Shown here: positions 20,758 to 45,900 of the stretch, piece by piece
Layout of the letters: every line of letters starts with the position of its first letter
How positions within the stretch are numbered: position 1 is the stretch's first letter
Source: Nocardioides okcheonensis
GTDB taxonomy: Bacteria; Actinomycetota; Actinomycetes; Propionibacteriales; Nocardioidaceae
Assembly: GCF_020991065.1 (NCBI RefSeq)
Contig: NZ_CP087710.1
Coordinates: forward strand, 3,348,001-3,412,000
Reading direction: 5' to 3'
Length of the DNA stretch: 64,000 bases
Position numbers and translations under genes: made by a program
Notes under the pieces: generated by a model
Database searches by the model: none
What the model saw: the letters and a program-made list of their open reading frames with translations, nothing else
What the model was told of the DNA's origin: nothing

Positions 20758-20809
20758 TAGAGTGACCTCGACTGATGCGCATCACGAATCGAGTTGCTCC
20801 ATGCGCAAC
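20758..20809 (+). promoter_or_regulatory. -10 box and operator pair E (GTTGCG-N5-CGCAAC type) at the MetF-like gene
   Basis: A TAGAGT -10 box (20758-20763) is followed by two copies of the 17-bp element found at the betaine genes. The first, 20774-20790, reads GATGCG-CATCA-CGAATC (weaker); the second, 20793-20809, reads GTTGCT-CCATG-CGCAAC. Their start-to-start distance is 19 bases, as at other sites. The second copy covers the start codon of the gene. Confidence 0.6.
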
Positions 20810-21646
20810 AAACGGACCGCCGCCACCCTCGTCCGCCTGCTCGAGCACGCGCGCTACGAGGTGCTGCCCACCGCGAGCACCGAGGACAAGGTGCTCGCGC
20901 ACGTGCCGCGCGACCTGGTCGTCACCGTGACCGCCTCGCCCTCCAAGGGGATGGAGGCGACGCTCGACCTCGCCGAGCGGCTCGCCGGCCACGGCTACGA
21001 CGTCGTGCCCCACCTCGCCGCCCGGATGGTGTCCGGACGCGCCGAGCTGACCGAGGTCGTCGAGCGGCTGCGGGGCAAGGGGGTCTCCCGGGTGTTCGTC
21101 CCCGGCGGGGACGCGGAGGCGGTGGGCGACTACCCCGACGCCCTCGCCCTGCTCGAGGACCTGAAGGAGCTGGGCTCGCCGTTCTCGCACGTCGGGATCA
21201 CCGGCTATCCCGAGTCGCACCCGACGATCCACGACGACCTCACCGTGCAGTCGATGTGGGACAAGCGGCGCTACGCCACCCACATCGTCAGCAACCTCAC
21301 CTTCGACCCCGCCCTCGTGCGCGACTGGGTGCACCGGCTGCGCGCCCGCGGCGTCACCATGCCCCTGCTGCTCGGCATCCCCGGCCCGGTCGAGCGCACC
21401 AAGCTGCTCGGCATGGCCACCAAGATCGGGGTGGGCGAGTCGACGCGGTTCCTGGCCAAGAACAAGGGCCTCTTCGCGCGGCTGGCCGCACCTGGCGGCT
21501 TCACCGGCGAGAGCTTCCTCGAGAAGTGCGCCCCCGCGCTCGGCGAGGACGGCGCGCTGGTGGAGGGCCTGCACGTGTTCACCTTCAACCAGGTCGCCGA
21601 GACCGAGGCGTGGCGCACGGGTCTGCTGGAGCGGCTGCAGTCCTGA
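20801..21646 (+). CDS. Methylenetetrahydrofolate reductase-like protein (MetF fold)
   Basis: A 281-residue FAD TIM-barrel protein of the MetF family, which interconverts 5-methyl- and 5,10-methylene-THF. The catalytic glutamate matches YEVLPTAS near residue 22, the flavin aspartate matches VFVPGGD, and GITGYPESHP and PLLLGIPGP are family landmarks. It lacks the usual metE/metH neighbours. The betaine-type operator overlapping its start suggests a catabolic role: oxidising methyl-THF produced by the corrinoid methyltransferase. ATG 20801 has no ribosome-binding site. It is followed by the unrelated gene at 21670. Confidence 0.82.
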   Translation: MRNKRTAATLVRLLEHARYEVLPTASTEDKVLAHVPRDLVVTVTASPSKGMEATLDLAERLAGHGYDVVPHLAARMVSGRAELTEVVERLRGKGVSRVFVPGGDAEAVGDYPDALALLEDLKELGSPFSHVGITGYPESHPTIHDDLTVQSMWDKRRYATHIVSNLTFDPALVRDWVHRLRARGVTMPLLLGIPGPVERTKLLGMATKIGVGESTRFLAKNKGLFARLAAPGGFTGESFLEKCAPALGEDGALVEGLHVFTFNQVAETEAWRTGLLERLQS

Positions 21647-21669
21647 CGGCCACGCCCTAGGGTGCGCGC

Positions 21670-22488
21670 ATGAGGACGACCACCGTCGTGGACGCGACCG
21701 AGACCGAGCACCGCCCGGGGCCGCTGCCCAGCGTGGTCGACGCGCTGCAGGAGCGCGGGTTCGTCGTCATCGGCAGGCTGGCCACGCTGTCCACCGTCGC
21801 GGGACGGGACGACCGCCTCTACGACCGGACCGAGCGCCATCGCCTGGCGACGTGGCACGCACGGCCCGCGGCGACGCTCGTGGTGGCGGGGGACGGGTCG
21901 GCCTTCGCGACCGTGGACACCTTCGGCGACGCCGCTGTGCTGCGGCTCCGGACGGCGCTCGCAGACGGGTCGCTCGTCGAGACCGTCGGTGTCGCGCCGG
22001 AGGGGGCGCTGCTGCCGCGCACGCGGGTCGACGCGTTGGGAGGCTTCGTCCTGGGCGAGGCCCGCGGCAGGTCCGTGCGACTGGTCCGCACGGCCGCCGT
22101 CGTCGAGGTGCTCGAGCGCCACGCCCAGCACGTCGCGGAGGTGGGCGGCGACCGCGGCAGCGAGCCCGTGGCGCACCGCGACCGGGACCAGGCGGTGCGG
22201 CTGTGGCGCCGGGCCGCGCGCCACGACACCGCGTGCTCGGCCTGGCGGTCCCGACGGTCCCGGCGACTGTTCCTCGGGGTGTGGCTCGGCACGGTCGCGG
22301 TCGTCCTGCTCGCCTGGCTGGCGCTGCTGGTGCGATGGCGTGTCGAGTCGCCGGCGGCTGGGGTCGCGCTGGTCCTCGCGCTGGTCGTCGCGGTCTCACC
22401 CCTCGTCCTCCTCGCGGCCCGGCGCGGGCAGCGAGGCATCGACGCCGGCGTCGGCTCACGGCCGGCGTACCCGGTGGCCGACGCCTGA
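21670..22488 (+). CDS. Hypothetical protein with two C-terminal membrane segments
   Basis: A 272-residue protein I do not recognise. The first 190 residues are soluble and contain repeated valine-rich beta-strand-like runs (ALPSVVDALQERGFVVIG, LVVAGDGSAFATVDTFG). Then come an Arg-rich stretch (RRSRRSRR-like) and two hydrophobic helices (LFLGVWLGTVAVVLLAWLAL and a second about 25 residues later). ATG 21670 follows TAGGGT by six bases, so the gene is probably leaderless. It converges with the DUF1638 gene, with 13 bases between stops. Confidence 0.7.
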   Translation: MRTTTVVDATETEHRPGPLPSVVDALQERGFVVIGRLATLSTVAGRDDRLYDRTERHRLATWHARPAATLVVAGDGSAFATVDTFGDAAVLRLRTALADGSLVETVGVAPEGALLPRTRVDALGGFVLGEARGRSVRLVRTAAVVEVLERHAQHVAEVGGDRGSEPVAHRDRDQAVRLWRRAARHDTACSAWRSRRSRRLFLGVWLGTVAVVLLAWLALLVRWRVESPAAGVALVLALVVAVSPLVLLAARRGQRGIDAGVGSRPAYPVADA

Positions 22489-22501
22489 CGTCCGGTGCGG
22501 G

Positions 22502-44046: not shown

Positions 44047-44062
44047 GGGAACGGTGGCTGTC

Positions 44063-45802
44063 ATGGCGATCAAGGACTCCCCCGGAGCGCAGCGCGAGAG
44101 CGCCCAGCCGCCGCCCGAGCGCGCTGACGGCCACCTCCCGCTCGACAAGGTGACCTTCGGGGTCGCCGCGGGCATCGCGGTCGCGTTCCTGCTGTGGGGG
44201 ACGCTCGACTCGACCGGGATGGGTGAGACCACCTCCACGGTGCTCGGTGAGCTGACGTCCCTGTTCGGCTGGCTGTTCATCCTCGTCAGCGCGTCGTTCC
44301 TGCTGTTCTCCGCCTACCTCGCGGTGAGCCGCTACGGCAACATCAGGCTCGGCCCGGACGACTCGGAGCCCGAGTTCTCCACGTTCTCCTGGGTCTCGAT
44401 GATGTTCGCGACCGGCATGGGCATCGGCCTGATGTTCTGGGGCGTCGCGGAGCCGCTGACCTACCTCACCGCCACCACCGCCGACAGCATCCCTCCGGGT
44501 CGCGGCGACCCGTCGACGCCCGACAGCGCGCGGGTCGCGATGGAGTACGCCTTCTTCCACTGGGGCTTCCACCCCTGGTCGATGTACGCCGTGATCGGCC
44601 TCGCGATCGGCTACTTCGCCTACCGCAAGGGCGCCGGCAACCTGGTGTCCGGCGCGTTCGGCCCGCTGCTGAAGGGGCGCGAGAAGGGTGGTGCGGGCAA
44701 GGCCATCGACGTGATCGCCATCTTCGCCACCCTCTTCGGCTCGGCGACCTCGCTCGGCCTCGGCGCGCTCCAGATCACCGGCGGCCTCGACGACGTCTTC
44801 GGCAGCGGGGACTCCAAGTGGCTGACGGTCGCCGTCATCGCCGTGCTGACGCTGTGCTTCGTGCTCTCGGCGGTGACCGGCATCGAGAAGGGCGTCCAGC
44901 TGCTCTCCAACGCCAACGCGATCGCGGCGGTGCTGCTGGTGTTCTTCCTCTTCGTCGTTGGCCCGACGGTCTTCATCCTCAGCACCTTCACCGAGTCGCT
45001 CGGCGGCTACCTCACCCACCTGCCGACGATGGCCTTCCGCACCGGCGCCTTCGGCGGCACCGAGTTCCTCAGCACCTGGACGATCTTCTACTGGGCGTGG
45101 TGGATCTCCTGGACGCCGTTCGTCGGCATGTTCATCGCCCGCATCTCCAAGGGCCGCACGATCCGGCAGTTCGTGGTCTACGTGATCCTGGTGCCGAGCG
45201 TGGTGTCGTTCGTGTGGTTCTCGATCCTGGCCGGCTCGGCCTTCGACCTCCAGCTCTCCGGCGCCAAGGACCTCGGCGCGGTGCTCGCGGACGAGGGCAC
45301 CGAGAGCGCGCTCTTCACGACGCTGCGCGAGTACCCCCTCGCGAGCATCACCGTCGTGCTGGCCGTCTTCCTGGTGGCGATCTTCTTCATCACCGGTGCC
45401 GACTCCGCCTCGATCGTGATGGGCATGCTCAGCCAGCACGGCAAGGAGGAGCCGATGCGCTGGCTCATCATCTTCTGGGGGGTCGCCCAGGGCGCCGTGG
45501 CTGCGGTGCTGCTGTTCTCCGGCGGGCTCGGTGCGCTGCAGACGCTGGTGATCATCGTGGCCGGGCCGTTCATGCTGGTGATCTGCGCGATGTGCGTCTC
45601 GCTGATGAAGTCGCTGCGCGCCGAGCCCTACGAGTCGACACTGCCCTCGCGGGTCCGCAAGGCGGTGCTGCACGCCCAGAGGTACGACCAGATCGAGCAC
45701 CACACCGTCGCGCTCGCGGCGCTCGGGGCCGACCCCGAGGAGGTCACCGGCGACCCGATGCCCGACGTGGACGCGGACGGTCGCCCAGCCCGCCGCGACT
45801 GA
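44063..45802 (+). CDS. BCCT family glycine betaine transporter (BetP/OpuD type)
   Basis: A 579-residue, 12-helix carrier. The coupling segment ATGMGIGLMFWGVAEP is the glycine-rich form I associate with sodium-coupled betaine carriers (BetP, OpuD), unlike the Asp form in the BetT at 37542. FYWAWWISWTPFVGMFIARISKGRT carries the conserved tryptophans. The C-terminal extension is short (about 50 residues). ATG 44063 is preferred; GTG 44054 is an alternative nine bases earlier. It has its own operator pair C and is followed by the dehydrogenase operon. Confidence 0.9.
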   Translation: MAIKDSPGAQRESAQPPPERADGHLPLDKVTFGVAAGIAVAFLLWGTLDSTGMGETTSTVLGELTSLFGWLFILVSASFLLFSAYLAVSRYGNIRLGPDDSEPEFSTFSWVSMMFATGMGIGLMFWGVAEPLTYLTATTADSIPPGRGDPSTPDSARVAMEYAFFHWGFHPWSMYAVIGLAIGYFAYRKGAGNLVSGAFGPLLKGREKGGAGKAIDVIAIFATLFGSATSLGLGALQITGGLDDVFGSGDSKWLTVAVIAVLTLCFVLSAVTGIEKGVQLLSNANAIAAVLLVFFLFVVGPTVFILSTFTESLGGYLTHLPTMAFRTGAFGGTEFLSTWTIFYWAWWISWTPFVGMFIARISKGRTIRQFVVYVILVPSVVSFVWFSILAGSAFDLQLSGAKDLGAVLADEGTESALFTTLREYPLASITVVLAVFLVAIFFITGADSASIVMGMLSQHGKEEPMRWLIIFWGVAQGAVAAVLLFSGGLGALQTLVIIVAGPFMLVICAMCVSLMKSLRAEPYESTLPSRVRKAVLHAQRYDQIEHHTVALAALGADPEEVTGDPMPDVDADGRPARRD

Positions 45803-45827
45803 CCCGTCCGCCGCTGCCCCCGGTTGC

Positions 45828-45900
45828 TTGACAGCCACCGGGGGACCGGCCGTACATTTCTTGCGTCGCACATGACGCAACACGTTGCGTGATACGCAAC
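45828..45900 (+). promoter_or_regulatory. Promoter and operator pair D of the dehydrogenase-ETF operon
   Basis: TTGACA (45828-45833) and TACATT (45853-45858) are 19 bases apart. Immediately downstream are GTCGCA-CATGA-CGCAAC (45865-45881) and the perfect GTTGCG-TGATA-CGCAAC (45884-45900), with a 19-base period. Confidence 0.8.

What the first reader, a model, noticed from the sequence alone, without database searches (positions are those of the whole stretch)
20774..45900. A new regulon element: GTTGCG-N5-CGCAAC in phased pairs at five promoters
The 17-bp element occurs at 20793 (one mismatch), 33327 (one mismatch), 39704 (one mismatch), 39723 (perfect), 44030 (perfect) and 45884 (perfect), each with a weaker or equal partner. 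Start-to-start distance is 19 bases at four promoters and 20 at one. It lies just downstream of -10 boxes where these can be seen (20758, 39683, 45853). The genes are purU/iclR, the betaine ABC operon, the BetP-type carrier, the dehydrogenase-ETF operon and a MetF-like gene: one pathway. The iclR gene at 33386 is the natural candidate regulator.
Basis: seen in the sequence. Interest (0 to 1): 0.9.

Follow-up and report, generated by a model that had tools for sequence, protein, structure and literature searches.

The report
Tandem operators of a betaine-catabolism IclR regulator
Five promoters in a Nocardioides choline/glycine-betaine breakdown island carry a paired DNA-binding site that is found in near-perfect form nowhere else in the genome and is kept in dozens of related species; it is very probably the switch for a neighbouring IclR-type regulator, a well-supported new regulon built on a known operator design.

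Summary
GTTGCG-N5-CGCAAC with at most one mismatch occurs six times in the whole 4.47-Mb genome, and all six lie in this 25-kb island. In 80 related loci, mostly Nocardioidaceae, the perfect palindrome occurs 92 times, while each of the other 59 permutations of its half-site occurs at most twice. A second, weaker copy lies 19 bp upstream of these sites although it was not selected for.

Elements stand before iclR1/purU, betB or proV, a BCCT carrier, the dimethylglycine dehydrogenase-ETF operon and an MTHFR-like gene. They track the iclR gene at 33386: perfect sites in 63 of 80 genomes with it, 20 of 118 without. A second IclR (26645) has its own operator, GTTCCA-N5-TGGAAC, at the corrinoid methyltransferase promoter.

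Best reading: tandem operators of a tetrameric IclR-family regulator, probably a repressor, controlling choline/betaine uptake and oxidation. The design (GTT-11-AAC, centres 18-22 nt apart) and even the TTGCG-N5-CGCAA core (TphR) are published for the family (PMC8222616), so the element type is not new; the regulon appears undescribed in the searches made. No binding or expression data exist here.

The parts
20774..20809 (+). Tandem operator (copies 20774 and 20793, 19 bp apart) before the MTHFR-like gene; its downstream copy contains that gene's ATG (20801)
   Evidence: the start codon inside the element recurs in relatives, e.g. L017, L026, L027, L040
20801..21646 (+). Methylenetetrahydrofolate-reductase-like gene (MetF-like)
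   Evidence: PF02219 8.3e-8, above gathering score; TIGR00676 43 bits, far below its cut-off
26645..27511 (-). iclR2, second IclR-family regulator (recognition helix GLAKSTTSRL)
27484..27500 (.). Second, different operator GTTCCA-N5-TGGAAC between iclR2 and mttB (weak second copy about 21 bp downstream)
   Evidence: the only perfect copy in the genome
27558..28997 (+). MttB-superfamily methyltransferase, probably glycine betaine:corrinoid methyltransferase; not preceded by the GTTGCG element
   Evidence: PF06253, TIGR02369 below cut-off; PDB relatives in order 4yyc 'putative trimethylamine methyltransferase', 2qne, 9yce 'Glycine betaine methyltransferase'
32416..33282 (-). purU, formyltetrahydrofolate deformylase, divergent from iclR1
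   Evidence: TIGR00655 above cut-off
33327..33362 (.). Tandem operator in the purU/iclR1 divergent region, over the -35 region of iclR1
   Evidence: same element at this place in relatives
33386..34216 (+). iclR1, IclR-family regulator, proposed cognate regulator (recognition helix GVHKSTASRL); possibly leaderless (-10-like TAGTGT 33374-33379)
34312..39581 (+). betB, betA, betT: betaine aldehyde dehydrogenase, choline dehydrogenase, BCCT choline transporter
39704..39739 (+). Tandem operator (39704, 39723) before the betaine ABC operon
39788..43938 (+). proV-like ATPase, fused proW-like permease, substrate-binding protein (choline/betaine ABC importer)
44010..44046 (+). Tandem operator (44010, 44030; 20 bp apart) before the betaine BCCT carrier
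44063..45802 (+). BCCT-family transporter, best match glycine betaine BCCT (below its equivalog cut-off)
45865..45900 (+). Tandem operator (45865, 45884) directly after TTGACA (45828) / TACATT (45853), before the DMGDH-ETF operon
45925..50209 (+). Dimethylglycine dehydrogenase/oxidase-type flavoprotein (DAO, FAO_M, GCV_T domains), etfB, etfA

Best explanation
The element is the operator of the IclR-family regulator encoded at 33386-34216 (IclR1). Each 17-bp palindrome GTTGCG-N5-CGCAAC binds one dimer, and two copies 19-20 bp apart (about two helical turns) place two dimers on one face of the DNA, so a tetramer occupies about 36 bp. At most target promoters the pair starts at or just after the likely transcription start, so bound IclR1 would block initiation or early elongation; a metabolite of the choline-betaine-dimethylglycine pathway would release it. 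IclR1 also binds its own divergent promoter with purU. The regulon is choline/betaine uptake (ABC, BCCT), oxidation to betaine, dimethylglycine oxidation with its ETF, and C1-folate genes. The corrinoid betaine demethylase genes belong to a second, related regulator (IclR2) with a different operator. Shown: sequence, genomic uniqueness at <=1 mismatch, conservation, spacing, gene set, co-occurrence with iclR1. Inferred: binding by IclR1, tetramer, repression rather than activation, the inducer, and that IclR2 binds the second palindrome.
For: Whole genome: 6 sites at <=1 mismatch, all in this island, backwards control 18. 80 related loci: 92 perfect sites versus <=2 for each of 59 other half-site permutations. 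The upstream partner was not selected for, yet dominates the profile at exactly -19 (91 sites). 247 elements (score >=20, or downstream copy >=18) in 79 of 80 loci plus the window: of 233 with a recognisable upstream copy 210 are spaced 19 and 20 are spaced 20; assigned to iclR1 68, betB 60, DMGDH 56, MTHFR 22, BCCT 18, purU 8, proV 6, unassigned 9; 0 assigned to RamA, MTR, DUF1638, MttB, IclR2 or FTHFS. Perfect sites in 63 of 80 family genomes with IclR1 versus 20 of 118 without (Fisher p 2e-18); without IclR1 the motif is at background (23 sites, control 23). Of 9 genomes with an IclR1 hit but no IclR2 hit, 6 have a perfect site within 130 bp of the iclR1 match; of 2 with IclR2 only, 0 have one (coordinates). 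Layout equals the published tandem GTT-11-AAC class (PMC8222616). His at recognition-helix position 27 in 110 of 112 IclR1-like and 0 of 82 IclR2-like hits.
Against: No binding, expression or ligand data. IclR1 and IclR2 co-occur in 71 of the 80 IclR1 genomes, so the pairing with IclR1 rests on few discriminating genomes (three of the six, G057, G086, G124, have only 43-50% identical IclR1) plus adjacency and autoregulatory position; the 2 IclR2-only genomes are incomplete (85% and 77%). 17 of 80 IclR1 genomes lack a perfect site, L082 (56% identity) has no element, and 10 of 22 fetched 3.7-kb non-family IclR1 loci show none. The PWM was trained on the same loci it was scored on. 14 of 247 elements have no recognisable partner. 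At iclR1 itself the element is upstream of the -10, so one geometry does not fit all promoters. In the window the betB upstream region shows no recognisable element.
Confidence: 0.87

Rival explanations
1. The element is the operator of the second IclR regulator in the island (26645-27511, IclR2), or of both.
For: IclR2 is in the same island, shares most recognition-helix residues in the window and occurs in 73 of 198 family genomes, mostly the same ones.
Against: IclR2's own promoter carries a different palindrome, GTTCCA-N5-TGGAAC (46 copies in 80 loci plus window, each other permutation <=1; 42 of 46 near both iclR2 and mttB). Genomes with IclR1 only keep GTTGCG sites by iclR1 (6 of 9), genomes with IclR2 only do not (0 of 2). 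Serinicoccus loci L078 and L079 have elements without an IclR2 match in the fetched stretch.
Confidence: 0.06
2. The inverted repeats act as RNA: paired hairpins in the 5' untranslated region (riboswitch, attenuator or ribosome-access control).
For: At most promoters the element would be transcribed, and in the MTHFR-like gene it contains the start codon.
Against: Compensatory changes are fewer than independence predicts (downstream copy 1 seen, 2.6 expected; upstream 10 seen, 20.1 expected), single-sided changes prevail, though G-U pairs were 19 and 150 cells; no Rfam match at gathering scores in 18000-51000; at iclR1 the element lies upstream of the -10; the two-copy 19-20-bp phasing is a DNA-helix signature.
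Confidence: 0.02
3. IclR1 is an activator or dual regulator rather than a repressor (a variant of the best explanation, not exclusive of its other parts).
For: IclR-family members include activators (recalled, e.g. PobR, PcaU); at iclR1 the element is upstream of the -10.
Against: At DMGDH, BCCT, betB and proV promoters the element lies downstream of -35-like TTGA (at -54 to -57 from the strong copy in 42 of 56 DMGDH cases), a repressor position.
Confidence: 0.15
4. Chance recurrence of a G+C-rich palindrome.
For: At <=2 mismatches the window and genome counts are not above expectation.
Against: 0 of 100 shuffles reach the <=1-mismatch count; elements in 79 of 80 related loci.
Confidence: 0.005

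Closest known systems
IclR-family group 1 motifs, subgroup GTT-11-AAC (GTTYCRYW3RYGRAAC), with tandem sites (Suvorova & Gelfand 2021, PMC8222616)
   Same: 17-bp palindrome with outer GTT/AAC; two copies with centres 18-22 nt apart; tetramer model
   Different: Fourth base is G where the joint consensus has Y; the words betaine, sarcosine and Nocardioides do not occur in that paper's main text (supplements not read)
TphR operator of Comamonas sp. E6 (TTTTTGCGCATAGCGCAAAAA, in Table 1 of PMC8222616, seen in a passage)
   Same: The same TTGCG-N5-CGCAA core, bound by an IclR-family protein
   Different: Outermost bases T/A instead of G/C; terephthalate genes in a betaproteobacterium; no tandem copy mentioned in the passage seen
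GylR of Streptomyces clavuligerus (PMC9732521, passages)
   Same: Actinobacterial IclR-family repressor of a catabolic operon and of itself, palindromic 18-bp operator
   Different: Glycerol catabolism; different sequence
BhcR (NF045644), best-scoring NCBIfam model for IclR1
   Same: IclR-type HTH plus effector domain
   Different: 200.8 bits, far below the 350 cut-off: not an orthologue
MtgBCA/MtgBCD glycine betaine:corrinoid methyltransferase systems (Desulfitobacterium; Ruegeria; PMC12478193, passages)
   Same: The island has MttB-superfamily, MtgC-like, MeTHF methyltransferase and RamA/AcsV-like activase genes
   Different: Here in an actinobacterial island with choline oxidation and two IclR regulators

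Membership tests
IclR-family transcription factor (IclR1, 33386) | N-terminal HTH_IclR and C-terminal IclR_C domain | tested here: met
   PF09339 4.6e-16 and PF01614 2.6e-43, both above gathering scores
IclR-family group 1 operator layout | 17-bp palindrome, outer GTT...AAC (GTT-11-AAC) | tested here: met
IclR-family tandem operator | Two palindromes with centres 18-22 nt apart | tested here: met
   210 of 233 at 19, 20 of 233 at 20, 3 otherwise
IclR-family tandem operator | Occupied by the cognate protein as a tetramer | not testable with these tools
   needs footprinting or a size measurement of the complex
GTT-11-AAC subgroup joint consensus (exact fit not claimed) | Pyrimidine at base four (GTTYCR) | tested here: not met
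   Base four is G; the known TphR site has the same G (PMC8222616), so the consensus is a joint average and not a strict requirement. The second operator (GTTCCA) does fit
BhcR equivalog | NCBIfam cut-off 350 bits | tested here: not met
   200.8 bits
Riboswitch or structured RNA leader | Compensatory base-pair changes or Rfam match | tested here: not met

The most novel reading that the evidence does not exclude
One betaine-catabolism pathway is divided between two related IclR regulators with distinct operators: IclR1 (GTTGCG) for uptake, choline oxidation and dimethylglycine/C1 oxidation, IclR2 (GTTCCA) for the corrinoid demethylase step. IclR1 and its operator are an old, class-wide actinobacterial betaine switch that persisted while the demethylase was exchanged: in L081 and L083 (Nocardioidaceae, no MttB match in the fetched stretch, though weak IclR2-like matches of 50% and 45% remain) and in 10 of 22 fetched non-family loci a Rieske oxygenase related to GbcA sits beside iclR1, and MttB elsewhere. 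The recognition-helix residue 27 (His versus Ala/Pro) would set the fourth base of the operator.
Probability: 0.55. Interest if true: 0.55.

Novelty: new member of a known kind. Interest (0 to 1): 0.42.

Why it matters
It gives a regulator, an operator and a gene list for choline/glycine-betaine catabolism in Nocardioidaceae and probably in other actinomycetes, where the searches made here found no description. It makes the control of an aerobic corrinoid-dependent betaine demethylation pathway directly testable, and offers a natural pair of neighbouring IclR regulators with different operators for specificity studies or betaine/choline sensors.

Tried and rejected
Chance (rejected). RNA hairpin or riboswitch (rejected). 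IclR2 as binder of the GTTGCG element (disfavoured). A pattern for the inner junction CGCAAC-NN-GTTGCG was uninformative at 2 mismatches in the window (8 found, 5.95 expected). The suspicion that some iclR2 relatives contain in-frame stops (10 of 73 flagged) was checked in one, G064: its stop lies before the conserved region, an alignment-edge effect; the other nine were not checked. An element directly before the GbcA-like gene was sought in 8 loci: one (L123, score 15.8) lay above the null maximum of -1.1, seven did not. The published His27-G contact matches IclR1 only if the paper's alignment position 10/22 is our fourth base; I could not settle the numbering from the main text, so it is a lead and not a test.

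Paper searches for a prior description. Searches returned no paper; none of the titles and abstract starts listed by the others (12, 15 of 37, 1 and 1 papers) describes this regulon, but those papers were not opened except PMC12478193. They cover only the held open-access library. Papers seen: PMC8222616 (outline, Results, Protein-DNA Contacts sections and passages; no supplements), PMC12478193 and PMC9732521 (passages only); all others as search listings.
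Full report
Where it is. The window is positions 3348001-3412000 of a single-contig 4.47-Mb genome. The 80 relatives of the 33386 product fetched from named genomes are mostly Nocardioides and other Nocardioidaceae (51-90% identity; exceptions include two Serinicoccus, one Kutzneria, two Jatrophihabitans MAGs), and a same-genus genome has 96% (G174), so this is a Nocardioides or close kin (inference). The region 20801-50209 is a betaine island: MTHFR-like; a corrinoid set (DUF1638, AcsV/RamA-like activase, MeTHF:corrinoid methyltransferase, MtgC-like corrinoid protein, MttB-type methyltransferase) with iclR2; FTHFS and purU; iclR1, betB, betA, betT; a ProVW-X type importer; a BCCT carrier; a dimethylglycine-dehydrogenase-type flavoprotein with etfBA. 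MttB matches five PDB sequences; the best is 4yyc, a putative trimethylamine methyltransferase, and the third, 9yce, is named glycine betaine methyltransferase (1.9e-116). The gene order recurs, with variations, in most of the 17 relatives printed.

Checking the observation. All six sites, mismatch counts and spacings hold. At <=1 mismatch the window has 6 where shuffles give 0.23 (0 of 100 reach it), and the whole genome has just these 6, against 18 for the backwards pattern. At <=2 mismatches there is no enrichment, so weak partners cannot be judged alone; they become credible only by phase and conservation.

Conservation. In the 80 loci L007-L086 (1.45 Mb) the perfect palindrome occurs 92 times; the other 59 arrangements of its half-site occur 2, 1, 1 and otherwise 0 times. 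Aligning 91 of these 92 (one too near a locus end) shows a second copy starting exactly 19 bp upstream (G 0.93, T 0.97, T 0.82, G 0.77, C 0.95 ... G 0.90, C 0.87, A 0.86), which had not been selected for. The spacer of the downstream copy is asymmetric (nnATR). A two-copy scan finds 247 elements (242 in relatives, 5 in the window; 79 of 80 loci, none in L082): 210 of the 233 with a recognisable upstream copy are spaced 19 bp, 20 are spaced 20 and 3 otherwise; 14 have no recognisable partner. The PWM was trained on these same loci; reversed, it gives 0 hits at a score of 18 where the true one gives 197 on the + strand. Elements fall before iclR1 (68), betB (60), DMGDH (56), MTHFR-like (22), BCCT (18), purU (8), proV (6), with 9 unassigned; none was assigned to the corrinoid genes, mttB, iclR2 or FTHFS (each element is given to its nearest gene start only).

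Which regulator. In 198 family genomes perfect sites occur in 63 of 80 with an IclR1 homologue at E <= 1e-40 (108 sites, backwards control 22) and 20 of 118 without (23 sites, control 23): without IclR1 the motif is at background. IclR2 homologues occur in 73 of 198, 71 of them with IclR1. Nine genomes have IclR1 but no IclR2 hit (G002, G022, G023, G052, G057, G086, G124, G156, G186); six (G023, G052, G057, G086, G124, G156) have a perfect site within 130 bp of the iclR1 match, though in G057, G086 and G124 that match is only 43-50% identical; G022 has one on another contig, G002 and G186 have none. Two have IclR2 only (G015, G042) and no perfect site, but both genomes are incomplete. Together with the element on iclR1's own promoter this points to IclR1.

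A second operator. The iclR2/mttB divergent region holds GTTCCA-N5-TGGAAC (exact in 42 of 59 extracted regions). In the 80 loci plus window it occurs 46 times against at most 1 for each of 179 other permutations; 42 of the 46 are near both iclR2 and mttB, 2 near each alone. In the own genome its only perfect copy is at window 27484-27500 (3 one-mismatch copies elsewhere, backwards control 14). A degenerate best second match lies 21 bp (37 of 46) or 20 bp (4 of 46) downstream, with 3-5 mismatches. The window's IclR1 and IclR2 share recognition-helix residues K28 S29 T30 S32 R33 but differ at 27 (His in 110 of 112 IclR1-like hits; Ala 68, Pro 13, Thr 1 of 82 IclR2-like hits) and 31 (some genomes are counted more than once, and most relatives have Phe at 32 in IclR1). 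Both operators keep GTT at bases 1-3 and C at base 5 and differ at bases 4 and 6. That IclR2 binds the second palindrome is inferred from position.

How it probably works. At DMGDH promoters a -35-like TTGA lies 54-57 bp before the strong copy in 42 of 56 cases, so the 36-bp pair begins about at the likely transcription start; BCCT (TTGA at -49 to -55 in 16 of 18) and betB/proV (-61 to -63 in 33 of 60 and 6 of 6) are similar. This suits steric repression. In the MTHFR-like gene the start codon is inside the operator, here and in relatives. At iclR1 in the window the pair covers the -35 region and the message may be leaderless. Tetramer, repression and inducer are inferred from the family.

Beyond the family. 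In 345 genomes of the class, 58 have an IclR1 homologue at E <= 1e-50, 50 of them outside the family; of 30 fetched loci of about 3.7 kb, 22 lie outside the family and 12 of those hold a tandem element scoring >=16, 10 do not. betA adjoins iclR1 in 10 of the 22. A Rieske oxygenase related to GbcA (NF058607, 228 bits, below its 670 cut-off) adjoins it in 10 of 22, and in the Nocardioidaceae loci L081 and L083. So the switch appears older than, and independent of, the corrinoid demethylase; this is an inference from neighbourhoods, not from a tree.

Compared with what is known. Suvorova and Gelfand (PMC8222616) define the GTT-11-AAC subgroup and tandem sites 18-22 nt apart in 94 orthologous groups, and list the TphR site TTTTTGCGCATAGCGCAAAAA, which holds the same TTGCG-N5-CGCAA core. 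The element has that layout, with G instead of the joint consensus Y at base four. I found no description of this regulon in the searches listed, which cover only an open-access library; supplements of PMC8222616 were not read and could hold this orthologous group. Verdict: a real, conserved regulon; a new member of a known kind.

Noticed in passing
window 27484-27521: Separate conserved operator GTTCCA-N5-TGGAAC with a weak second copy about 21 bp on, between iclR2 and mttB; presumed site of IclR2.
   Followed up: yes
window 29019-30659: GH68 levansucrase/invertase gene sits between mttB and FTHFS; none of the 17 relatives printed shows it there, so it looks inserted in this lineage.
   Followed up: partly
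window 21670-22488: 272-aa ORF of no recognised Pfam or NCBIfam family between the MTHFR-like gene and DUF1638, without a match in the 17 relatives printed; origin unknown.
   Followed up: no
window 57251-58063: Phosphatidylcholine-synthase-like gene (below NCBIfam cut-offs) some 7 kb beyond the betaine island, a possible choline consumer.
   Followed up: no
L081 7905-9008, L083 8762-9856, L123 360-1490: Rieske oxygenase related to glycine betaine monooxygenase GbcA beside iclR1; in L081 and L083 no MttB match was found in the fetched stretch, while weak IclR2-like matches were.
   Followed up: partly
window 20793-20809 and relatives: Start codon of the MTHFR-like gene lies inside the operator's downstream copy (ATGCGCAAC), also in several relatives; in other loci the sequence GTTGCGNNATGAGCAAC just before the iclR1 match suggests the same for iclR1.
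   Followed up: partly
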